Assembly (NCBI RefSeq): GCF_003590945.1
Contig: NZ_QYUK01000011.1
Span: 4,186,909-4,250,908, forward strand
DNA: 64,000 nt
Direction of reading: 5' to 3'
Source: Oleomonas cavernae
GTDB taxonomy: Bacteria > Pseudomonadota > Alphaproteobacteria > Zavarziniales > Zavarziniaceae
This document shows, piece by piece, positions 13,481 through 41,682 of this stretch; within the stretch, counting starts at the first letter, position 1, and every line of letters starts with the position of its first letter. The notes below the pieces were generated by a model. The model was not told the origin of the DNA. It searched no databases and was given only the letters and a program-made list of their open reading frames with translations. The translations under genes and the position numbers were made by a program.

Positions 13481-13528
13481 GCAGGGTCGGGCGACAAACC
13501 AATGGCAAGCCGCACAGCCCAACCCTGC
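13481..13528 (-). promoter_or_regulatory. Leader hairpin, likely riboswitch expression platform
   Basis: On the transcribed strand GCAGGGTTGGGC can pair with GCCCGACCCTGC (12 pairs, one G-U). It lies between the aptamer and the exporter start codon, about 16 bases before the ATG. No U-run follows, so control of translation is more likely than termination. This is inference from pairing and position. Confidence 0.5.
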
Positions 13529-13544
13529 GAAGGATGGATGCAGC

Positions 13545-13660
13545 CTGCCAAAGGTCTCGCCAAGCATCTCGGCCGTGCGCGCCATGGTCGCCGGTGGCCC
13601 GGTTCCCAAGTCTGTTGACGCGCACCCCGCTTGAAGACGCGGGCGGCTACTCCCCAATGA
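13545..13660 (-). promoter_or_regulatory. yybP-ykoY manganese riboswitch aptamer
   Basis: The transcribed strand carries the class signature TTGGGGAGTAGCC at its 5' side (13646-13658). Further in are GTCAACAGAC and GACCATGGCGC, then GGCCGAGA with GGCGAGACC (13553-13573). These are the conserved internal-loop elements that bind Mn2+ in this class. The gene it controls is an exporter with two EGDKT-type motifs, a known target class. A covariance search would settle the exact limits. Confidence 0.85.
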
Positions 13661-13769
13661 CGCGGCGGTGATAGCGCGGCGCGATCGCGATCACAAGAAA
13701 AACCGATTGCCGCATTCCTGTCATACCGTTCATGATATGTTCGCAATGTCCGAAAAACCGGAGGGATAA

Positions 13770-15045: not shown

Positions 15046-15645
15046 ATGCGGACCGCCACGATCGCCCGCAAGACCAAGGAGACCCAGATTGCGGTCTCGC
15101 TGAACCTGGACGGCACCGGCAAGTACACGGTGTCGACCGGCATCGGCTTCCTCGACCACATGCTGGAGCAGCTCTCGCGGCATTCGCTGATCGATCTCGA
15201 GGTGAGCGCCAAGGGCGACACCCACATCGATTTCCACCACACCACCGAGGATACCGGCATCGCCATCGGCGAGGCGGTGACCAAGGCCCTGGGCGACCGG
15301 GTCGGCATCCGCCGCTATGGCGACGCGCTCATCCCCATGGACGAGACCCTGACGCGGGTGGCGCTCGACTGCTCCAACCGGCCCTACCTGATCTGGAAGG
15401 TGGGCTTCACCCGGCCCAAGCTGGGCGAGATGGACACCGAGCTGTTCAAGGAATGGTTCCAGGCCTTCGCCCAGGCGGCCGGCATCACCCTGCATGTCGA
15501 AAACCTCTACGGCGAGAACAACCACCACATCGTCGAGAGCTGCTACAAGGGCCTGGCCCGGGCGCTGCGCCACGCGATCGAGACCGATCCGCGGGCCGCG
15601 GCCGCTGTGCCCTCGACCAAGGGCGTGCTGGGCGGCAGCCTCTAG
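15046..15645 (+). CDS. hisB: Imidazoleglycerol-phosphate dehydratase HisB
   Basis: HisB dehydrates imidazole-glycerol phosphate to imidazole-acetol phosphate in histidine synthesis. The 199-residue protein shows the manganese-binding motifs [13 protein letters not shown] and [15 protein letters not shown], and the second metal set near [19 protein letters not shown]. It is the stand-alone dehydratase, without the phosphatase domain of enterobacterial HisB. It is the first gene of the his cluster; a ribosome site GAGG is 12 bases upstream, rather far. Confidence 0.97.
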
Positions 15646-32154: not shown

Positions 32155-32367
32155 GGGTGGCTCCTTTTTTTGGCGTTGGTGGCTTTGAGGATAACACACG
32201 AGGGCGGGGAAGGGTTCGTGGAGGTCTGTGCTGGGGCCTCTCTACAACTGGGGCGGTGGTTGCCCTTGGGGAAACGGGCGATTGGGCTGGAAAATGGAAA
32301 AACGGATAGGAAGGAGGAAAATGGACGTAAAGCATACTGAAACTAATTCGTTATGAAATATTATTAT

Positions 32368-32976
32368 CTATATATCCGGCTCATTCAAAAACTGTAGTCG
32401 ATCACAAAGAAAATATACTCCCAATAACATCGTAATGACAATTTGCCACAATACAAAAAAGAAAATCTGAGTTATAATAATTTTGATCACCGAGAATTCA
32501 AAAAGAACATACGGTATTATTTTGGCCAAATCCGGCCCAATCAAGCGGACAAAATGAAGAAGTATAAGAAATAACAGCGAAACAAAAGAAAGGTATCCGA
32601 ATAAATAGCAAATAAATTGTCTGTGAGTTAACACAAAGTCCTTCTTTGAGCCAGATTTTGTCATAATAGATAGGGTTGCAGGTTGTCCCTTTATTTTATC
32701 ATCTAAACCCTTCCGCTCGAATGTTGCCACGGCAGCTAGTGCAGCAATAAAAAAGGCTATGATTAGATTAAGGAGGTCAATAATTGCAGGTATGAGTCCC
32801 TTATCTGCGAAAATCCCCATCTTTATCGATAAAAGATATACCAAGGTCGTATTGGCTATCGAAAATAACCCGGGCAAAACAAAATCATACATTGTTTTAG
32901 AGTGAAATATTCCATCGCCTTGCTTTATTGCAAGGTATCTCAAGGGTACACCAAGTTGCTTAAAAGCCCAGAGCAT
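32368..32976 (-). CDS. Four-helix membrane protein of the AT-rich operon (putative effector)
   Basis: The 202-residue protein has four membrane helices at about 31-52, 60-82, 120-143 and 163-191, with a basic cytoplasmic loop (ERKGLDDKIKG, residues 87-97) between helices 2 and 3. Base composition is strongly AT-rich, unlike the surroundings, a sign of transfer. Its ATG follows the stop of the upstream gene directly (TAGATG), so the two are translated together. No enzyme motif is visible. A pore- or depolarisation-type effector like lambda RexB is my inference from size, topology and partner; no family was recognised. Confidence 0.7.
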   Translation of the reverse strand: MLWAFKQLGVPLRYLAIKQGDGIFHSKTMYDFVLPGLFSIANTTLVYLLSIKMGIFADKGLIPAIIDLLNLIIAFFIAALAAVATFERKGLDDKIKGQPATLSIMTKSGSKKDFVLTHRQFICYLFGYLSFVSLLFLILLHFVRLIGPDLAKIIPYVLFEFSVIKIIITQIFFFVLWQIVITMLLGVYFLCDRLQFLNEPDI

Positions 32977-33990
32977 CTACCATCTTTCTTCGCTCTCAAT
33001 TACTGAGATCATTTTCTTTTCTATCTGCAACTGTACTTTTGAGTAGCAGGCCTCAAGCATCAATCCAAACCCTGTTATCCTCTGCGATCTGGAATATAAT
33101 GTTTCCATTGCATCTATTTTATCAACCATAAGCCGCGGTGAGGAGGATTTTTTGCCAGGTAAATCAGTTATTTTAAACTGAATCTCGTTGTAGTTATTGT
33201 TTTTTGCCCACAACATAACGTTACGGATATAATTCGATATTCTGTTTTCATCCACACGCTTAGTTCTGATAGTCAATTTTTCCGATATAGATTTCATTAT
33301 ATCGGGGGCCCCTGGGCCAGTATACTGTGGTTTTTTCTTAATAAGATTAATCTCAGACAATTCGCCTTTCTTGATATCCTCGATTATCTTTTCGCTTGGG
33401 ACCCTATTGATAGATAATCTTATCTTATAGGGACGGAGTTCGACGCGAGTTTTCCCACGAGATCTCAGCACCTTCTCGTAAAGGAAATCGCTGTTTCCTT
33501 GTGTGTATTTGTCCAAAATAGAGTCCAAAAGCTTTTGAACAAGGGTGCTAGACACATTCTGCATTTGCTCAAAACACGCGCGAAATTCCCCCTGGGAATC
33601 CGCGTTGGTAGAAATAACTAAATGCGCAGACCAACCCTGCATCTCGTCATCTTCTGGCTCAACGGATCGAACATCCTCGGATACGGGTTTTATAAAAGCG
33701 GGATTTGCTGCATCCGGATCACCACGATTAATGAGAATAGTCTTAATTCCTTGACGCCCATTAGTCTTTATATCAGCAATGTAAATACAATTTACTTCAG
33801 AAAAATCACCTTGCTCCATTACTATCTTGTGATCATTGTCAAAGTACATTTTTGCCGAGCCATTTTGGTGCGCGAGCTCAATTATTTCAAAAATCTTATG
33901 TATATCCACCTCTGCGGACGCCTCTTTAGGCAGGGGATGGCCCTGCATCCGCCACATAAATATCTGCCGTTCTGTCTTGAGAGCGACCAT
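32977..33990 (-). CDS. Soluble protein of the AT-rich operon (putative RexA-like sensor)
   Basis: The 337-residue soluble protein has an N-terminal alpha/beta region (1-115) containing MYFDNDHKIVMEQGDFSEVN. A central part GWSAHLVISTNADSQGEFRA (119-138) is followed by a helix pair. Beta-rich segments come next (VELRPYKIRLSI near 183; KLTIRTKR near 238), then a C-terminal helical stretch (300-337). The order resembles lambda RexA as I remember it (lifestyle-exclusion sensor), though identity is low. I chose ATG 33990, which has AAGGA six bases upstream; a start at 33996 leaves no ribosome site, and the frame to 34164 enters GC-rich DNA. First gene of the operon. No family call is certain. Confidence 0.7.
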   Translation of the reverse strand: MVALKTERQIFMWRMQGHPLPKEASAEVDIHKIFEIIELAHQNGSAKMYFDNDHKIVMEQGDFSEVNCIYIADIKTNGRQGIKTILINRGDPDAANPAFIKPVSEDVRSVEPEDDEMQGWSAHLVISTNADSQGEFRACFEQMQNVSSTLVQKLLDSILDKYTQGNSDFLYEKVLRSRGKTRVELRPYKIRLSINRVPSEKIIEDIKKGELSEINLIKKKPQYTGPGAPDIMKSISEKLTIRTKRVDENRISNYIRNVMLWAKNNNYNEIQFKITDLPGKKSSSPRLMVDKIDAMETLYSRSQRITGFGLMLEACYSKVQLQIEKKMISVIESEERW

Positions 33991-34131
33991 CAACATTCCT
34001 TCCGCAGCGTGCGACAACTGAGGAGTGTACAACAACCACCGATAGGGATGTCGACCACAATGTGAAGCCCAAGGGCGACCAGCCTCTAGGCACGATGGAG
34101 CGACGCTATATTTTGAACGGCCACGGTACGC

Positions 34132-34147
34132 CCACAACATGTTGTGG
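34132..34147. promoter_or_regulatory. Perfect 16-bp palindrome upstream of the AT-rich operon
   Basis: CCACAACATGTTGTGG is a perfect palindrome 142 bases upstream of the operon start. A dimeric repressor could bind here. The rest of 33991-34238 contains no supported gene. Confidence 0.45.
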
Positions 34148-34238
34148 TGACCTTCTCTCGACACACAAAAAGGCTTGGCGCCGACGCTTTTGCACGGTAA
34201 AAGTTGTGCTGCAGACGTCGTCTGACGACCGAAGCAAA

Positions 34239-34266
34239 AGAGGGGTCAGCAATCGCTAACCCCTCT
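34239..34266 (-). terminator. Minus-strand terminator-like hairpin
   Basis: AGAGGGGTCAGC and GCTAACCCCTCT pair (11 of 12) with loop AATC. On the minus strand it is followed by TTTTGC. It lies upstream of the AT-rich operon and could insulate it or attenuate its transcript. Confidence 0.5.
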
Positions 34267-34273
34267 CATAGGT

Positions 34274-34347
34274 GACCGGGTGGCAGAATGGATATGCGCC
34301 TGGGCGTTGCAAGCTAGGAGACGCTGGTTCGATTCCAGCCCCGGTCT
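34274..34347 (+). tRNA. tRNA-Cys-like gene with a 10-base anticodon loop
   Basis: Acceptor arms GACCGGG and CCCGGTC pair fully. The T arm is GCTGG-TTCGATT-CCAGC (34323-34339). The D arm is GCAG-AATGGATA-TGC, as in alphaproteobacterial tRNA-Cys. The discriminator is T, as in tRNA-Cys. The anticodon stem CCTGG/CTAGG (one G-U) encloses GCGTTGCAAG, ten bases instead of seven, containing TTGCAA with GCA. The length of 74 is three more than a standard tRNA-Cys. The next bases are CAG, not CCA. An alternative seven-base loop would give anticodon TGC but a mismatched stem. It may be a pseudo-tRNA or a specialised tRNA-like RNA; a strong terminator follows. Confidence 0.6.
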
Positions 34348-34353
34348 CAGTCT

Positions 34354-34381
34354 AAGCGGTCCCGAAAGGGGCCGCTTTTTC
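34354..34381 (+). terminator. Rho-independent terminator after the tRNA-like gene
   Basis: AAGCGGTCCC and GGGGCCGCTT form a 10-bp stem (one G-U) with a GAAA loop, followed by TTTTTC. It begins seven bases after the tRNA-like gene. Confidence 0.85.
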
Positions 34382-34434
34382 TTTGTACTCAATCTTGACA
34401 GGAGAATCATCCCTGATTCGACAACGGATATCAA

Positions 34435-34467
34435 GGCGAATATCGTCGAAATTTGACGATATTCGCC
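34435..34467. promoter_or_regulatory. Perfect 13-bp inverted repeat, likely operator of the RHH gene
   Basis: GGCGAATATCGTC and GACGATATTCGCC flank a seven-base centre GAAATTT. The right arm ends 11 bases before the ATG at 34479 and touches its ribosome site, so it may act as a DNA operator, as an RNA hairpin masking the ribosome site, or both. Confidence 0.65.
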
Positions 34468-34478
34468 GGAGCAGAGGA

Positions 34479-34667
34479 ATGCCCTTGGAAACAGAGAGAG
34501 ATGGAGAAATTCGTTTTACCGTGAACCCACAGACAATGGCGTATCTCTGTTGGCTTACCCGGAACACGACATTAGGCAAGGGCCCCAATGACGTTGCTCG
34601 CCAAATTCTGATCCAGCGTCTTACTGAAATGCGCCAAGAAGATTACAGGGATAAACAACGCCCCTAG
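34479..34667 (+). CDS. Small ribbon-helix-helix-like protein
   Basis: The 62-residue protein contains a beta strand plus two helices: GEIRFTVNPQTMAYLCWLTR followed by GPNDVARQILIQRLTEM. The alternation and the ARQILIQRL helix fit an Arc/MetJ-type DNA-binding fold. ATG 34479 is preferred to the TTG at 34383, which lies within the terminator. The inverted repeat immediately upstream is its probable target. No partner toxin follows before the isochorismatase gene, which is on the opposite strand. Confidence 0.6.
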   Translation: MPLETERDGEIRFTVNPQTMAYLCWLTRNTTLGKGPNDVARQILIQRLTEMRQEDYRDKQRP

Positions 34668-34716
34668 GGCGCATGCACGCGGCTGCCTGGAATAGGCGCG
34701 CATTCCTCTAAGAGGC

Positions 34717-35346
34717 TCACGCCGCTGCCGGCAACGCCGCCAGCAGTTCCGTGGTGGTCAGGACCTGGTGGGCGAAGGCGGGGGCGTTGATGTCGTGGGC
34801 GGCGTGCATCGCTTCCGCGCTGAAGGCGGCGGTGGCGTCGCGCACCAGGGTGACGTGATAGCCAAGATCGGCCGCGAAGCGCGCCGTGCTCTCGATGCAG
34901 GTATTGGCGATCAGGCCGATCAGGATGACGTGGCTCACCCGGTGCTGCTTCAGCAGGAAATCGAGGTCGGTATTGGCAAAGCCGTTGCCGCTCCAATGCT
35001 CCTTGACCACGGTGTCGCCCGGCTGGGGCGCGAAATCCGGGTGCCAGTCGCCGCCCCACGAATCCTTGGCGAAGACCTGCAGCTTGGCCGCGCCCAACTG
35101 ATAGGGCGTGGGGTGGTCCCAGCCGTGGAAATCGTCCGGCTCGGCCCGATGGTGGGGCACGATGAAGACCGGGATTTTCGCCGCGCGCACGCCCGCGGTG
35201 ATGGCGCGCAGGTGGGCGTGCAGGTCGACGGCCGTGGCGACTTCCGCCAGCCGCGGCCACAGCTTGCCGCCGTCCGAGAGGAAGTCGTTATAGGGATCGA
35301 CGAAGAGCAGGGCGGTGCGGGCGGCGTCAAAGGCTTGGGCGGTCAT
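34717..35346 (-). CDS. Isochorismatase-family hydrolase
   Basis: This 209-residue cysteine hydrolase has the catalytic triad of the family: Asp in LLFVDPYNDF (near residue 17), Lys in VVKEHWSGNGF, Cys in IANTCIESTARFA. It likely cleaves a small amide (nicotinamidase, N-carbamoylsarcosine amidase and others share the fold); the substrate is not readable. AAGGA precedes the ATG at 35346. It lies 22 bases downstream of the thiolase gene and may be co-transcribed with it. Confidence 0.9.
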   Translation of the reverse strand: MTAQAFDAARTALLFVDPYNDFLSDGGKLWPRLAEVATAVDLHAHLRAITAGVRAAKIPVFIVPHHRAEPDDFHGWDHPTPYQLGAAKLQVFAKDSWGGDWHPDFAPQPGDTVVKEHWSGNGFANTDLDFLLKQHRVSHVILIGLIANTCIESTARFAADLGYHVTLVRDATAAFSAEAMHAAHDINAPAFAHQVLTTTELLAALPAAA

Positions 35347-35368
35347 GGGTTCCATCCTTGCGTGTAAG

Positions 35369-36613
35369 TCAGGCCGCTTCCAGCAGCACGCAGGTGCCCT
35401 GGCCGCCGTCGGCGCAGATCGAGACGATGGCGCGCTTGCCCCGGCCCAGCGCGCTCAGTTCCTTCACCGCTTGGGCGAGGATGCGGGCGCCGGTGGCCGC
35501 GAACGGGTGGCCGATCGAGAGCGAGCCGCCGTGGGGGTTGAAGCGGTCCCAGGGGAAGGGGCCGAGGTCGGCGGTGACGCCCGCCTTCTCGCGCCGGTAG
35601 GCAGGGTCGGCGATGGCCTGGACATTGGCCAGGACCTGGCCGGCGAAGGCCTCGTGGATCTCCCACAGGTCGATATCGTCGAGGCGCAAGCCCTGGCGGG
35701 CCAGCAGGCGCGGAATGGCGCGGCCGGGCGACATCAGGATGCCCTCCTCATGCCAGTCCATGGCGGCGAGCTGCCAGTCGACGAGGCGCGCCGCCGGGCG
35801 GTCGCCCAGCTTGGCGCGGCCCTCGGCATCCGCCACCCAGATCGCGGCGGCGCCGTCGGTCAGGGGCGAGGCATTGCCGGCGGTGATGCTGCCCCGGCCC
35901 GAACGGTCGAACACCGGCGGCAGGGCGGCCAGTTTCTCGGCCGTCGAATCCCGCCTGACCAGGCCGTCGCGGGTAACCCCGTCGATGGCAATCACCAGGT
36001 CGTCGAAGAAGCCGGCGTCCTGGCCCGCCACCGCGCGCTGGTGGGAGAGCAGGGCGATCCGGTCCTGGTCCTCGCGGGCGATGTTGAAATGCTTCACCGT
36101 ATCCTCGGTGTGCTCGCCCATGGAACGGCCCGAGATGCGGTTGGCCCAGCCCTTGACCGGCAGGTTGAAATCGTCGAAGCCGAGCGCGGTCGCGGCTTCC
36201 GCCAGCTTGCCCTGGGCGGCCAGCGCCATCAGGCGCAGGGCGGCCTCGGGCTTGAGCGCGATAGGCACCCGGCTCATGGTCTCGACCCCGCCCACCAGGC
36301 CTAAGTGGTTGCCGCCCTTGCCGATCATCCCGGCGGCCTGGATCGTTGCCATCATGCTGGTGGAACAGGCCATGATGGTCGAGAAGGCGGGGATTTCCGG
36401 GTCCAGCCCGGCATCGAGCACCAGCTCGCGCCCGATGTTGGACACGGTGGTGGAGGGAATCACCTGGCCCCAGGCCAGGAAATCGGGCCGCGCCTGGGCC
36501 GCCATGGCCCGGGCCACCGGCACCGAGAGTTCCAGCGCGTCGAACTTCTGGAACACCCCGCCCGCCTTGACGAAGGGCGTGCGCACCCCGGGAACGAGAA
36601 AGGCATCCGACAT
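35369..36613 (-). CDS. Acetyl-CoA C-acyltransferase (thiolase)
   Basis: Catalyses thiolytic cleavage or condensation of acyl-CoA, in fatty-acid beta-oxidation or ketoacid metabolism. The 414-residue protein has the nucleophile Cys in IMACSTSMMA (near residue 84), the His in HEAFAGQV and in IGHPFAATGAR, and the second Cys in ICADGGQG. The sequence PVKGWANRISGRSMGEHTED suggests the FadI-like branch rather than PhaA. No FadB-type partner is adjacent. Confidence 0.93.
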   Translation of the reverse strand: MSDAFLVPGVRTPFVKAGGVFQKFDALELSVPVARAMAAQARPDFLAWGQVIPSTTVSNIGRELVLDAGLDPEIPAFSTIMACSTSMMATIQAAGMIGKGGNHLGLVGGVETMSRVPIALKPEAALRLMALAAQGKLAEAATALGFDDFNLPVKGWANRISGRSMGEHTEDTVKHFNIAREDQDRIALLSHQRAVAGQDAGFFDDLVIAIDGVTRDGLVRRDSTAEKLAALPPVFDRSGRGSITAGNASPLTDGAAAIWVADAEGRAKLGDRPAARLVDWQLAAMDWHEEGILMSPGRAIPRLLARQGLRLDDIDLWEIHEAFAGQVLANVQAIADPAYRREKAGVTADLGPFPWDRFNPHGGSLSIGHPFAATGARILAQAVKELSALGRGKRAIVSICADGGQGTCVLLEAA

Positions 36614-36726
36614 GGCAAGACCCCGTGTTGTCGTCTAGGGGATCATGCGCTTCCGGTCGGTGCCGCCGGTATCGAACCTTGGCACGGCTGCCTAACACCT
36701 AGGTATGACGGAGGGGTGCCCCGCCG

Positions 36727-37113
36727 TCACAGAAGCTGCAGCGCGATCGCGAACATGGCCAGCAGCCCGGCATAGAAGGCGGCGGTGCGAATATAGAGGA
36801 TGCCGGCGATATAGCTCGCCGCATGGACCAGGCGGGCGCCGAGGAAGACCTCGGCCGCGACGCGCGTCACCTCGTTCGAGACCCCGGCGGCATGGGCGAC
36901 CAGGATGAGAAGGCCGAACGGCACCAGGTTTTCGATCTGGTTGGCATGGGCGCGGATATACCGCCCCGGCCAGCCGGCGGGCGGCGCGAAGCGCTCGCGA
37001 TTGCCCAGCAAGGGGCCCATGCCCATCTTGAGGGTCAGGGCCGTGCCCTGCACCGCGACCATGACCAGCGGTATCAGCGCCGCCAGCAGCAGCATGTAAA
37101 GCTCGAGACTCAT
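36727..37113 (-). CDS. MAPEG-family membrane protein
   Basis: The 128-residue protein has four helices and the MAPEG-typical block RYIRAHANQIENLVPFGLL with the R-x-x-x-N-x-x-E pattern used for glutathione binding in family members. In bacteria such proteins are small membrane-bound enzymes of glutathione or lipid metabolism; activity is unproven. GGAGGGG stands seven bases before ATG 37113. Confidence 0.85.
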   Translation of the reverse strand: MSLELYMLLLAALIPLVMVAVQGTALTLKMGMGPLLGNRERFAPPAGWPGRYIRAHANQIENLVPFGLLILVAHAAGVSNEVTRVAAEVFLGARLVHAASYIAGILYIRTAAFYAGLLAMFAIALQLL

Positions 37114-37190
37114 CTGTGTACCCCTCCATGCCTCGCGGCGAGCGGAAGGTAACACGGCGGTGGCGGCAAACCGCCCCCCGCCACCCCCCA

Positions 37191-37655
37191 TCACCCCGCC
37201 AGCGGCCGGTTCAGCTCGGTGCGCCAGGTCGTCGGGTCGGGGCTCGACTGCGGGCCGACGGCATAGAGCTCCCACAGGTCCGGCGCCGGCTTGTGGCCGT
37301 TCGCGGCCATCCAGGCCATGAACTCGCCCCAGGCGCCGGGCAGGCCTTCGTAGGGGCCGCTGTAGATCGTGCGCGCCACCTTGGCCGCGGGCAGCTCGCC
37401 CGGCTTCACCCGGCCGGCGGCTGTCACCGGTGCCGAGACCTTCACGCCCAGTTCGAAATCGAATTGGCCGTCGGTCATCTTCAGGTGGTGGGCGAAGACC
37501 GCGCCCACCGGCTCCACCCCCTGGGCGGCCAGCGTCGCCATCAGCTCAGCCACGGCGGGGCCGAAGACCTTCATCATCTGCTCCCGCGGGATGGTCAGGT
37601 GGATGACGGCGGCCGCCTGGGCCGTGGTGTCGAGGATGCGTGGCGTATCCAGCAT
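37191..37655 (-). CDS. GyrI-like effector-binding protein
   Basis: The 154-residue protein matches the GyrI-like/AraC effector-binding fold: MLDTPRILDTTAQAAAVIHL at the start, FELGVKV mid-way, then AAKVARTIYSGPYEGLPGAWG. No DNA-binding domain is attached, so it may bind or hydrolyse small ligands. It is the third gene of an ArsR-SRPBCC-GyrI operon; GGAGGG precedes the ATG. Confidence 0.8.
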   Translation of the reverse strand: MLDTPRILDTTAQAAAVIHLTIPREQMMKVFGPAVAELMATLAAQGVEPVGAVFAHHLKMTDGQFDFELGVKVSAPVTAAGRVKPGELPAAKVARTIYSGPYEGLPGAWGEFMAWMAANGHKPAPDLWELYAVGPQSSPDPTTWRTELNRPLAG

Positions 37656-37674
37656 GATTTCATCCCTCCAAAGG

Positions 37675-38139
37675 TCAGATTATGGTCTCGAGCCGGACAT
37701 AGCTCGCTTCCATGCCGTGCTCCATGCCGGAGGCCAGCATTGCCGCGCGGGTCTGCGCATCGGGCAGGGTCATGCGCATGGTCATGAAGGTGCCGGTGCC
37801 GTCGGCGACGAAGCTGGTCTCGACGTGGTTGTCGGGTGTGCGCTCGGGCAGGAACATGCGCTCGACATGGACGATCCGGCTGAACGGCACCAGTTCCAGA
37901 TATTCGCCGGTCAGGTAGAAGCCGCCGCCCTTGCCGTCGCTCCATTCATAGCGGATCTTGCCGCCCACGCGGGCCTCGTTGAGGCACACCGGCATGGTCC
38001 AGCCCTCCGGCCCCAGCAGCCATTGCTGGATCAGCGCGGGCTCGGTATGGGCGCGGAAGACAGCCTCCGGCGCGGCGGCAAAGCGCCTGGTGACGACGAC
38101 ATGGGCGTCGCCCTCGGTCCTGATGCTCAGTCTGGGCAC
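37675..38139 (-). CDS. SRPBCC (AHSA1-like) protein
   Basis: The 154-residue START-like protein starts VVVTRRFAAAPEAVFRAHTE, with the strand-helix pattern of the AHSA1 family, and has LIQQWLLGPEGWTMP and GKIRYEWSDGKGGGF. It probably binds a hydrophobic ligand. The GTG start at 38139 follows GGGAGGAC. Pairing with an upstream ArsR regulator is common for this family and implies joint regulation. Confidence 0.85.
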   Translation of the reverse strand: MPRLSIRTEGDAHVVVTRRFAAAPEAVFRAHTEPALIQQWLLGPEGWTMPVCLNEARVGGKIRYEWSDGKGGGFYLTGEYLELVPFSRIVHVERMFLPERTPDNHVETSFVADGTGTFMTMRMTLPDAQTRAAMLASGMEHGMEASYVRLETII

Positions 38140-38155
38140 GTTATGTCCTCCCTGA

Positions 38156-38476
38156 TTACTTCGGTGTCATGGCAGCCAGCACCGCGTCCAGCCGGTCGTA
38201 GTTCCTGGCAAGCGCCTCGCGCAGCATGGTCAGCCACTGGTCGATCGCCTCGATCCCGGCCGGGGCCAGCCGGCAGGGCCGCCTGGTGCCCTCGGCCCGC
38301 CGGATGATCAGCCCCGCCCCCTCCAACACCTTCAAGTGCCGCGACACCGCCGGCTGGGTCATCGCGAACGGCGCCGCCAGTTCCATCACCGTCGCCTCGC
38401 CCAGCGCCAGCCGGGCGAGGATCGCCCGGCGGGTGGGGTCGGCGAGGGCGGAGAAGGTGGCGTCGAGGTTGGGCAA
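38156..38476 (-). CDS. ArsR-family transcriptional regulator
   Basis: The 106-residue winged-helix protein starts with FSALADPTRRAILARLALGE and contains the recognition helix MTQPAVSRHLKVLEGAGLI. It lacks the cysteine pair of metal-sensing ArsR members, so it belongs to the group paired with SRPBCC proteins. The likely start is TTG 38476. A perfect palindrome lies about 28 bases upstream. Confidence 0.88.
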   Translation of the reverse strand: MPNLDATFSALADPTRRAILARLALGEATVMELAAPFAMTQPAVSRHLKVLEGAGLIIRRAEGTRRPCRLAPAGIEAIDQWLTMLREALARNYDRLDAVLAAMTPK

Positions 38477-38503
38477 GGGCGGGCTTTCTTTTCAATAAAG
38501 AGA

Positions 38504-38517
38504 TTGTTATATAACAA
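38504..38517. promoter_or_regulatory. Palindromic operator of the ArsR-SRPBCC-GyrI operon
   Basis: TTGTTATATAACAA is a perfect 14-bp palindrome in an AT-rich patch just upstream of the ArsR gene. It overlaps a possible -10 (TATAAC on one strand). Autoregulation by the ArsR protein is inferred. Confidence 0.65.
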
Positions 38518-38687
38518 GTTAGTTATCGTCAAGCGCCGTCCGGCCCTTTGGGGTACGCACCCGACGTTGGAAAGAGTATTGGTGGCCGGGAACGGAAAGG
38601 CCGCTTTAGGGCTTCCGGTTACGAAAGCCGAGCCGCCGAGGTTCAAACCAGGCCGAAAAACCGGCTTCAACGCGAAAGGGACAGGCA

Positions 38688-39161
38688 ATGCAAAAGAACA
38701 CGATTTGTCTCTGGTACGACAAGGACGCCGAGGCTGCCGCCCGCTTCTATGCCGAGACCTTTCCCGACAGCGCGGTGACTGCCGTGCGCCGGGCCCCTGG
38801 CGACTATCCGTCCGGCAAGGCGGGCGACGTGTTGACGGTCGAATTCACCGTTGCGGGCATTCCCTGCATCGGCCTGAACGGGGGCTCCTATTTCAAGCCC
38901 GACGAAGCCTTCTCGTTCCAGATCGCCACCGACGACCAGGAAGAGACCGACCGCTACTGGAATGCCATCGTCGGCAACGGCGGCCAGGAGAGCGAGTGCG
39001 GCTGGTGCAAGGACCGGTGGGGGATTTCCTGGCAAATCACCCCGCGCGTGCTGACCGACGCGATGGCGATGGGCGGTGACGAGGCCAAGCGCGCCTTTGA
39101 CGCCATGATGACCATGAAGAAAATCGACGTCGCGGCGATCGAGGCGGCGCGGCGCGGGTGA
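38688..39161 (+). CDS. PhnB-like VOC protein
   Basis: The 157-residue protein shows the PhnB/3-demethylubiquinone-methyltransferase-like fold: ICLWYDKDAEAAARFYAETF at the start, LNGGSYFKPDEAFSFQI, and CGWCKDRWGISWQITP. These proteins are VOC-fold members of unknown chemistry despite their old name. It is convergent with the direct repeat that precedes the immunity-type gene. Confidence 0.85.
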   Translation: MQKNTICLWYDKDAEAAARFYAETFPDSAVTAVRRAPGDYPSGKAGDVLTVEFTVAGIPCIGLNGGSYFKPDEAFSFQIATDDQEETDRYWNAIVGNGGQESECGWCKDRWGISWQITPRVLTDAMAMGGDEAKRAFDAMMTMKKIDVAAIEAARRG

Positions 39162-39182
39162 CGCCCATCGCCAGCGGTAGGC

Positions 39183-39232
39183 CCTACCGCCAATCGTCCA
39201 TCACCAAGCATTCCGCCCGGTTGTAACCCGCC
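39183..39232. repeat. Direct repeat, copy 1 (duplicated 3' end of the acetyltransferase gene)
   Basis: 50 bases identical except one to 40100-40149. The second copy is the true end of the GNAT gene (encoding AGYNRAECLVMDDWR and the stop). The repeats bracket a 0.9-kb segment. Confidence 0.85.
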
Positions 39233-39324
39233 TCTTGCGTAGGCAAGGGGTGTCGCCGGATCTTGCGAGTCTGAGGTTCGCGAATACGCCCTGCACAACT
39301 GGGCTGAGTAGGCGGGTGAGCGTC

Positions 39325-40079
39325 ATGATAGACTGGAGTGCACTTTCGCATGCGTATGGTGAGGCAACAGACGTACCCGAGCTGATCAGGCGGTTTCGTA
39401 CGCATCCCAGCGGGGCAATCTCCAAAGAATTGTGGAGTTGCCTGTGTCACCAGGGCACCGTCTACCCTGCGAGTTTTGCCGCACTCCAGCCACTTTGCGA
39501 ATTGGCTAAGGGCCTTTCCCCTTGGAACGGCTCTCGCCGCTGATGCTAGTTGGCGCGATCATCGCGTCGGACGATTTGGTTGGGGTCGATCAGCGGCCAA
39601 CCGACATGATCCAGGCAGTCATCCCAGATGCTGAAGCCCTTATGGAAGACTGCCTGGCTTCAGGCGAACTCGACCAAGAAGCCTTCATCTATTGCCTGCA
39701 AACCTTATGTGCCCTCGCTGGGCATCTTTTCTGGGGGCGAAATCTTTCCTATCTCTTTAGTGGCGAGTTTTCCGGCAACTGCTCCGCTTGCGGGCACAGC
39801 CTATATTTCGTTGTTGGCGCTTATGGCTTTTTCTGCGTGGGTGAGGAATGGATCGGTCCGAGGAAGCGTACCAGTACTCAAAACCCTATCTTCCCCTCCC
39901 CATTGCAACACCTTTCGCCCGTGGCAGCATGGCTCCACCAAAAGGCCGTCGCACATGATCAGCTTGAGGTAGCGAAGCAAATCCTTCACCTGTTTGGCAC
40001 CACAAAATGTCCAGAATGCAATATAATGTTGGAGGTTTCCCCAGCAATAACTCAGGCAAGCGGTAGCTCGGGAGATTAG
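39325..40079 (+). pseudogene. HEAT-like, immunity-type protein, one frameshift
   Basis: The first frame (ATG 39325) reads MIDWSALSHAYGEATDVPEL, then ELWSCLCHQGTVYPASFAAL, a repeat-type opening seen in HEAT-like immunity proteins of polymorphic toxin systems. It breaks near 39515; the next frame continues SPLMLVGAIIASDDLVG to 40079 and carries zinc-ribbon-like cysteines (CSACGHS and CPEC). The span of 755 bases is two more than a multiple of three, matching one missing base. Intact length would be about 251 residues. No toxin is beside it. Confidence 0.65.
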
Positions 40080-40099
40080 AGTAGGAGTCCGATCGGTCG

Positions 40100-40149
40100 C
40101 CTACCGCCAATCGTCCATCACCAGGCATTCCGCCCGGTTGTAACCCGCC
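40100..40149. repeat. Direct repeat, copy 2
   Basis: Pairs with 39183-39232 (one mismatch). It includes the stop codon and the last 15 codons of the GNAT gene. Confidence 0.85.
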
Positions 40150-41018
40150 GCGCCATCGCGCAGCATGGCCACGCCTTCGAAGGCGACCTTGAAGCCGCGC
40201 GCTTCCATCAGCGCCAGTGCCCGGCTGCGCGCCGCGTTGGTGCCGGCCATCAGGGCGGTGGCGCCCAGGCCGTGGGCATAGGCCTCGCAGGCGGCCAGCA
40301 GGCGGTCGAAGGCGTCGGCGGCGCCGGGTTTTGCGGCGCCGAACTTGACGTAGACGGTGTCGCTGCCGGCTTCGGTCCCGGCGCCGGCATGGCAGACGGC
40401 GAAGGCAACCAGCTCGGTGCCATCGTGGACCAGCACGGTATCGCCCAGCTTCTGCGCCGCCACCGCGGCGATCTCGCCCGTCAGGTCCAGGCCGGGATAG
40501 ACCGCACCGGCCAGGGCCCGGCAGGCGGCGAGGCTGCCTGGCCGCGCGGCGATCGTCGTCCAGGGGGCGGTGTCGGCGCGCTCCACCCGCTTGGCCATCA
40601 CCGGGGTGAGGGCGCCGACGGCAAAGCCGAATTTGCCGTAGAAGCCATGGTGCTTGGGGCTGTCGGGGAAGGTGAACAGGCCCAGTTGCCGGGTGCCCCA
40701 GGCCGCGAACAGGGCCATGGTGCGTTCCAGCAGTTGGCGCGCGATGCCCTGGTCCCACAGGTCGGGGCGGATGGTCAGCGGGCCGAAGAAGCCGAAGCTG
40801 CCCCAGTTGGCGGCGAAGTTGGAGCCGACCAGTTCGCCGTCGCGGAAGGCGCCCAGGGTGGCCTGCGGGTCGGCGTGCCAGCGCGGAGCGATCAGGGCAG
40901 CGTCGCCCATGAAGCTCGACGGCTCGGGCAGCCCCACGAAGGTGCCGAAGGCCAGGCGGAAGATGCGGTCGGCGGCGGCAAGGTCGGCTTCGGCCAGGGG
41001 CCGGATCTCGATGTCCAT
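40101..41018 (-). CDS. GNAT-family N-acetyltransferase
   Basis: The 305-residue protein has an N-terminal GNAT domain: MDIEIRPLAEADLAAADRIF, then GPLTIRPDLWDQGIARQLLE (the acetyl-CoA pyrophosphate loop) and GFYGKFGF. A second, GNAT-like C-terminal half follows, with NAARSRALALMEARGFKVAF. Substrate unknown. ATG 41018 is preferred over the longer frame, which enters the cytochrome gene's downstream region. The 3' end is duplicated at 39183-39232. Confidence 0.85.
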   Translation of the reverse strand: MDIEIRPLAEADLAAADRIFRLAFGTFVGLPEPSSFMGDAALIAPRWHADPQATLGAFRDGELVGSNFAANWGSFGFFGPLTIRPDLWDQGIARQLLERTMALFAAWGTRQLGLFTFPDSPKHHGFYGKFGFAVGALTPVMAKRVERADTAPWTTIAARPGSLAACRALAGAVYPGLDLTGEIAAVAAQKLGDTVLVHDGTELVAFAVCHAGAGTEAGSDTVYVKFGAAKPGAADAFDRLLAACEAYAHGLGATALMAGTNAARSRALALMEARGFKVAFEGVAMLRDGAAGYNRAECLVMDDWR

Positions 41019-41034
41019 GGCGGTGCTTTCGGGG

Positions 41035-41520
41035 TTACGGCATGACCACGGCGAGGTAGGGCGCGGTCGGCTTGTCCGCGGCGCCCGCCATCGCCGGGGC
41101 GGCATGATGCACGGGTTTCAGGCTTTTGAGATAGGCCGCAAGGGCCTGGGCGTCGGCATCGGACAAGGCGCCATAGTGGCCATAGGGCATCGCCGGCGCC
41201 AGCACCCGGCCATCGGGCCGCACGCCGGTGCGCACCGCGGCGACGATCTGCGCCGCCGTCCAGGTGCCCAGGCCCGTTTCCCTGTCCGGCGTCAGGTTGG
41301 GCGGGTAGAAGATGCCCAGGCCCGGAATCTGGAAACCCACCGTCGAGCCGGCGAGGTAGCGCTCGGGATCGGGCTTGCCCAGCAAGGCCCCGGTGGTGTG
41401 GCAGCCGCCGCAGTCCATGATGGTGGCGAGATATTCGCCGCGCTCGACCTGGTCGTCGGCGCGGGCGGGAGCGGTCAGGGCGGCGGCGATCACCGCCCCG
41501 ATGATGAAAGTGTCGCGCAT
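41035..41520 (-). CDS. c-type cytochrome
   Basis: The 161-residue periplasmic protein has a signal peptide (ends ARAD, about residue 22), one haem site CGGCH (near residue 37-41) and the distal Met region LAPAMPYGHYGALS, then a class I C-terminal helix ALAAYLKSL. It resembles the cytochrome subunits of alcohol or aldehyde dehydrogenases, but no dehydrogenase gene adjoins it. Its promoter region holds an AT-rich palindrome. Confidence 0.9.
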   Translation of the reverse strand: MRDTFIIGAVIAAALTAPARADDQVERGEYLATIMDCGGCHTTGALLGKPDPERYLAGSTVGFQIPGLGIFYPPNLTPDRETGLGTWTAAQIVAAVRTGVRPDGRVLAPAMPYGHYGALSDADAQALAAYLKSLKPVHHAAPAMAGAADKPTAPYLAVVMP

Positions 41521-41565
41521 GGGTGGGCCTGTCGGCTGCGGTTTCGATACGAAAGACTTATAATG

Positions 41566-41577
41566 AGATAATTATCT
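41566..41577. promoter_or_regulatory. AT-rich palindrome before the cytochrome gene
   Basis: AGATAATTATCT is a perfect 12-bp palindrome within TTATAATGAGATAATTATCT and a following TTATAACAAGATAA. It lies between divergent cytochrome and hrcA genes and could be a regulator site. Confidence 0.45.
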
Positions 41578-41682
41578 TATAACAAGATAAAAGTCTCCAT
41601 GCTTCCATCGAGCGCGACACCCCCTACATTGACGCCCCCGTCCCCCTCCCTACATTGCAGCCGCAAACCAAGGGAATCCGCG

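What the first reader, a model, noticed from the sequence alone, without database searches (positions are those of the whole stretch)
34274..34347. tRNA-Cys-like gene with a ten-base anticodon loop
All arms fit alphaproteobacterial tRNA-Cys, including the T discriminator, but three extra bases enlarge the anticodon loop. It has its own terminator and lies beside the AT-rich operon. It could be a specialised tRNA-like RNA (for instance a decoy for an anticodon nuclease), a frameshift suppressor, or a decaying att-site tRNA.
Basis: partly seen in the sequence, partly recalled or inferred. Interest (0 to 1): 0.6.

Follow-up and report, generated by a model that had tools for sequence, protein, structure and literature searches.

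The report
Mobile Cys-bodied tRNA with Ala anticodon
This is an intact but hybrid tRNA gene on foreign DNA, with the body of a cysteine tRNA and what reads best as an alanine anticodon; it belongs to a rare, scattered set of such genes in bacteria of at least three phyla and one viral contig, and may make the cell put the wrong amino acid at alanine codons.

Summary
The tRNA-like gene at 34274-34347(+) is real: it scores 47 bits in Rfam, has an intrinsic terminator, U73 and no encoded CCA, and the genome has an ordinary tRNA-Cys elsewhere. The "ten-base anticodon loop" is probably a misreading. Relatives in Gemmatimonadota, Dehalococcoidia, Gamma- and Alphaproteobacteria and a viral contig have a longer anticodon arm that fits a normal 7-nt loop on a 5-6 bp stem. 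U33 is present in 11 of 12, and the anticodon N34-G-C varies between UGC, CGC and AGC (Ala box). The window copy is this arm plus one bulged G; its apparent anticodon is UGC. The body is Cys type (G1:C72, C3:G70, U73; no G3:U70). Stems show strong compensatory variation, so these are not random pseudogenes. Host tRNA-Cys genes of two carriers are of another type, indicating horizontal transfer. Three of five relatives found by tRNA sequence lie beside IS1595-family transposases. The window copy lies beside a candidate defence pair (PDC-M53), but two other M53 loci lack it. Closest known kind: dual-identity tRNA-ProX of Streptomyces. Missense translation (Cys at GCA/GCG) is the leading mechanism but untested. 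I found no support for an att-site relic, frameshift suppressor or nuclease decoy.

The parts
34274..34347 (+). tRNA-Cys-bodied hybrid tRNA, apparent anticodon UGC (Ala), no encoded CCA, U73, C3:G70
   Evidence: Rfam 47 bits, ARAGORN Ala(tgc), body nearest to Cys, covariation of family
34299..34318 (+). anticodon arm: CCTGG + bulged G + C / loop GTTGCAA (34306-34312; anticodon 34308-34310) / GCTAGG
   Evidence: register comparison over 12 relatives; energies
34239..34266 (+). strong hairpin 7 nt upstream of the tRNA, with an A-run 5' of it (terminator-like on the opposite strand)
   Evidence: sequence; folding z -4.3; upstream hairpins stronger in relatives than at ordinary tRNA-Cys genes
34354..34377 (+). 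intrinsic terminator of the tRNA transcript
34480..34667 (+). small protein that looks like a ribbon-helix-helix protein (by eye), about 130 nt downstream of the tRNA; a similar small ORF follows the relative in L076
   Evidence: blastp 32% over 44 aa, E 9e-4; no Pfam match
32977..33990 (-). PDC-M53A, candidate phage-defence protein, divergent from the tRNA (start codon inferred)
   Evidence: PADLOC PDLC04696 E 2.4e-27; start candidates
32368..32976 (-). PDC-M53B, hydrophobic partner protein
   Evidence: PADLOC PDLC04699 E 1.9e-37; phrog_8257 E 3e-31
32200..41598 (.). accessory DNA absent from two same-genus relatives, where the flanking genes are neighbours of hrcA; contains M53, the tRNA and metabolic genes, no integrase found; boundaries approximate

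Best explanation
A dual-identity (hybrid) tRNA on horizontally acquired DNA. The body carries tRNA-Cys identity features in the acceptor stem; the anticodon loop reads UGC (Ala box) on a lengthened 6-bp anticodon stem with one bulged G. Shown here by sequence comparison: conserved cloverleaf, Cys-type body, NGC register, absence of encoded CCA, ordinary tRNA-Cys elsewhere in the genome, relatives in distant phyla. Inferred: after RNase P processing and CCA addition it is charged, probably with Cys by the host's CysRS, at low efficiency because the anticodon is not GCA. It then acts as a missense (mistranslating) tRNA that inserts some Cys at GCA/GCG codons, kept by mobile DNA or selected under stress or phage attack.
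For: Rfam and ARAGORN. Ordinary tRNA-Cys in the same genome. Pattern scan of the genome collection gave four relatives, plus L129, L154/L181 and viral L190. Alignment of 12: 98.3% of cells paired, 14 of 20 pairs with changes on both sides, covariation 0.72 against 0.22 in shuffles. NGC register fits all, U33 in 11 of 12, N34 = U, C or A. Body nearest to Cys by a clear margin once family members are set aside. Horizontal transfer: carriers in Gemmatimonadota and Dehalococcoidia have their own, different tRNA-Cys; the window copy and L063c are 88% identical over 66 nt. Precedent: tRNA-ProX, a Pro body with Ala/Asn/Thr anticodons, mistranslates in E. coli (PMC11415595).
Against: No expression, charging or decoding data. 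CysRS is known to need the GCA anticodon for good activity (own knowledge), and no second, dedicated CysRS was found in this genome, unlike the ProRSx pair. No convincing promoter. The window copy has a bulge that relatives lack and is the lowest-scoring tRNA of its genome. The hybrids do not form one clade, so several origins, or some decayed copies, are possible.
Confidence: 0.45

Rival explanations
1. A structured hybrid tRNA that works outside elongation: a decoy, sensor or regulatory RNA of a mobile element, processed like a tRNA but not used to decode.
For: Terminator-like hairpins bracket many family members; association with IS1595 transposases in three of five relatives found by tRNA sequence; beside a candidate defence pair here; lengthened anticodon stem.
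Against: U33, the A/G-A/G after the anticodon and N34 variation with fixed G35 C36 look like decoding features; other M53 loci lack it; no nuclease or partner identified.
Confidence: 0.25
2. A foreign tRNA-Cys relic in early decay: the window copy is a pseudogene with an extra G in the anticodon stem and no function in this host.
For: Lowest tRNA score in the genome, no CCA, bulge absent in relatives, no convincing promoter, several apparent origins, no relative in the other same-genus genomes searched.
Against: All 7 acceptor and 5 T-stem pairs intact; tRNA core positions kept; terminator intact; family-wide compensatory changes.
Confidence: 0.2
3. Att-site or tRNA-fragment remnant of an integrated island.
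For: It lies in accessory DNA absent from relatives.
Against: No integrase or notable flanking repeat found; the gene is inside, not at the edge of, the insertion; it is a whole gene with an acceptor stem different from that of the host's tRNA-Cys.
Confidence: 0.04
4. A true ten-base anticodon loop acting as a frameshift or unusual-codon suppressor tRNA.
For: The 10-nt loop fold is nearly isoenergetic with the bulged form.
Against: Relatives support a 7-nt loop register; frameshift suppressors typically have one extra loop base (own knowledge).
Confidence: 0.04

Closest known systems
tRNA-ProX (ProA, ProN, ProT) of Streptomyces and Kitasatospora (PMC11415595)
   Same: Body of one amino-acid identity with the anticodon of another, including an Ala anticodon; unusual features in the anticodon arm.
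   Different: Cys body, not Pro; N34 varies (U, C, A), not only A34; lengthened anticodon stem; no dedicated synthetase seen; on mobile or accessory DNA in several phyla.
Ordinary alphaproteobacterial tRNA-Cys(GCA)
   Same: Body, U73, C3:G70, D-arm TGGC.GA.TGG.
   Different: Anticodon arm 3 nt longer, NGC register, no encoded CCA.
tRNA-Ala(UGC)
   Same: 7-nt loop ending UUGCAA (host tRNA-Ala: UUUGCAA).
   Different: No G3:U70, U73 in place of A73, Cys-type D arm and acceptor stem.
tRNAs with 4-bp anticodon stems (PMC13092985)
   Same: Non-standard anticodon stem length in bacteria.
   Different: There the stem is shortened by one pair; here the arm gains 2-3 nt.
Phage tRNAs with anticodon-loop mutations that evade host tRNases (PMC10264068)
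   Same: Mobile-element tRNAs with altered anticodon loops.
   Different: Proposed to replace cleaved host tRNAs with the same decoding role; here body and anticodon disagree.

Membership tests
canonical tRNA-Cys | Cys-type body (G1:C72, C3:G70, U73) | tested here: met
canonical tRNA-Cys | GCA anticodon in a 7-nt loop on a 5-bp stem | tested here: not met
tRNA-Ala | G3:U70 pair | tested here: not met
   C3:G70 in the sequence
tRNA-Ala | NGC anticodon | tested here: met
   register comparison
dual-identity tRNA (general kind) | body identity and anticodon disagree | tested here: met
   by sequence only
dual-identity tRNA (general kind) | is aminoacylated and mistranslates | not testable with these tools
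   needs biochemistry
tRNA-ProX itself | dedicated paralogous synthetase | tested here: not met
   one strong CysRS match in G000
tRNA-ProX itself | Pro body (C1:G72), A33, A34 | tested here: not met
   G1:C72, U33, U34
att-site tRNA relic | integrase or direct repeat at island ends | tested here: not met
component of PDC-M53 defence system | tRNA present at other M53 loci | tested here: not met
   absent at L055 and L236; only two tested

The most novel reading that the evidence does not exclude
Mobile DNA in several bacterial phyla and phages carries transferable missense tRNAs (Cys body with Ala-box anticodon, and apparently other mismatched pairs such as Leu body with Thr, Pro or stop anticodon), often next to IS1595-type transposases, as a programmed mistranslation tool of mobile elements, for example in conflict between host and phage.
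Probability: 0.25. Interest if true: 0.85.

Novelty: new variant of a known kind. Interest (0 to 1): 0.55.

Why it matters
Dual-identity tRNAs are known in bacteria mainly from Streptomyces tRNA-ProX. A Cys/Ala version that moves between phyla would show that altered decoding can be a mobile trait, and it offers a small, directly testable gene (74 nt) for asking why cells tolerate or use mistranslation.

Tried and rejected
Link to PDC-M53: two other M53 loci have no tRNA. A dedicated CysRS: not found in this genome. IS1595 as a necessary partner: none in the window, and most transposase loci lack a tRNA. A terminator-only or cassette role suggested by the inverted flanks in L063: such flanks are not general. 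Searches of plasmids and phages with the window sequence gave no family member. Papers on enlarged anticodon loops or PDC-M53: nothing matching. A single clade of hybrids was not supported by a tree of 54 body positions, which has little resolution. Structure prediction of M53A was not run because the M53 link had already failed.

Full report
Observation. The window holds a complete tRNA cloverleaf at 34274-34347(+), Rfam tRNA 47.0 bits (gathering 29), called tRNA-Ala(UGC) by ARAGORN. It is the lowest-scoring of 52 tRNA matches in its genome. Nearly all the other tRNAs encode CCA; this one does not. An ordinary tRNA-Cys(GCA) lies at C11:1735805. A strong terminator follows at 34354-34377, and no convincing promoter was found upstream.

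Context. The gene lies next to, and divergent from, two genes that match the PADLOC candidate defence pair PDC-M53 A and B, in AT-rich DNA. Two same-genus genomes have the flanking genes beside hrcA, so about 9.3 kb of the window (32.2-41.6 kb) is accessory. No integrase was found among the genes tested, and no flanking direct repeat of note. The tRNA has no relative in the five other genomes of its genus that were searched.

Relatives. A pattern for a Cys-type body with a longer anticodon arm was scanned against the genome collection (84,980 species). By inspection four loci are real relatives: L061 (Proteobacteria MAG), L063 (Gemmatimonadota, three copies), L069 (Dehalococcoidia) and L076 (Gammaproteobacteria). 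The other hits look like chance, apart from an ordinary-looking tRNA with masked bases in L073. More were found through transposase neighbours (L129; L154/L181) and in a viral contig (L190). A covariance model of the first seven sequences scanned over 385 alphaproteobacterial genomes gave one match above 80 bits, the window itself; the rest are at or below about 76 bits, and those read are nearly all ordinary tRNA-Cys. The family is therefore rare.

Structure. In an alignment of 12, 98.3% of cells form standard pairs, 14 of 20 pairs have changes on both sides, and the covariation score is 0.72 against 0.22 in shuffles. This argues for selection on the fold, though the structure was fitted to these sequences, the sequences are related, and some loci are copies in one genome. 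The GCA register does not form a stem, while the NGC register gives a 7-nt loop with U33 in 11 of 12 and N34 = U, C or A. The window copy is this arm plus one bulged G; the 10-nt loop and the bulged 7-nt loop differ by only 0.2 kcal/mol, so the comparison, not the energy, carries the argument. The bulge lies in a GGG run and may be a real indel or an assembly error.

Identity. Excluding the anticodon arm, the body is nearest to tRNA-Cys among canonical tRNAs (family members were themselves in that reference set under the label Ala(tgc) and must be set aside). G1:C72, C3:G70 and U73 agree with Cys; the G3:U70 of tRNA-Ala is absent. So body and apparent anticodon disagree. Own tRNA-Cys genes of the Gemmatimonadota and Dehalococcoidia carriers are of another type, and the window copy is 88% identical to L063c over 66 nt: horizontal transfer. 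The hybrids do not form one clade, and L076 is nearest to its own host's tRNA-Cys, so repeated origin is possible.

Neighbours of relatives. Of five loci found by tRNA sequence alone, three (L061, L063, L076) lie beside an IS1595/ISXO2-family transposase; L069 does not, and none was noticed in L190. Among 82 transposase-centred loci most have no tRNA, but several that do carry odd ones. The window has no such transposase. Upstream hairpins are stronger than at ordinary tRNA-Cys genes (mean z -2.7 against -0.3, p about 0.001; the set of 14 includes two other odd tRNAs, and the shuffles kept base but not dinucleotide content).

Mechanism. [quoted passage not shown] coli (PMC11415595). By analogy this RNA could carry Cys to GCA/GCG codons. 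This is inference: CysRS prefers the GCA anticodon (own knowledge) and only one strong CysRS gene was found in the host. A non-decoding role and a decaying relic remain open. A decoy role tied to M53 is not supported, since M53 loci on a Salmonella record (L055) and in another proteobacterium (L236) have no tRNA.

Noticed in passing
L181 10682-12265 and 15558-15629 (G291:C19): Cluster of six odd tRNA genes near a pyrE-like gene and a transposase: Cys-type bodies with CGC/AGC anticodons and Pro-like bodies (C1:G72) with apparent NAG anticodons, partly as close pairs.
   Followed up: partly
L168 2354-2439, L180 2762-2862, L197 295-376, L133 2810-2882: Other odd tRNAs near IS1595-type transposases: Leu-type bodies with apparent UGU, AGG and CUA (amber) anticodons, and one with C73 and UGU.
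   Followed up: partly
own genome C11:762437-762578 (L183 7438-7579): Two CCA-less tRNA-like genes 2 nt apart, one with an anticodon loop of about 3 nt.
   Followed up: no
window 13483-13671 (-): yybP-ykoY manganese riboswitch, 62.4 bits.
   Followed up: no
window 15387-15476 (+): ARAGORN reports a tRNA of unknown type with a two-base anticodon; no Rfam match, probably spurious.
   Followed up: no
L199 2594-2661; L171 5837-5942: Rfam DUF3800-VIII RNA and skipping-rope RNA near IS1595-type transposase loci.
   Followed up: no
window 32200-41598: Accessory insertion on the upstream side of hrcA, with isochorismatase, thiolase, MAPEG, methyltransferase and acetyltransferase genes.
   Followed up: partly
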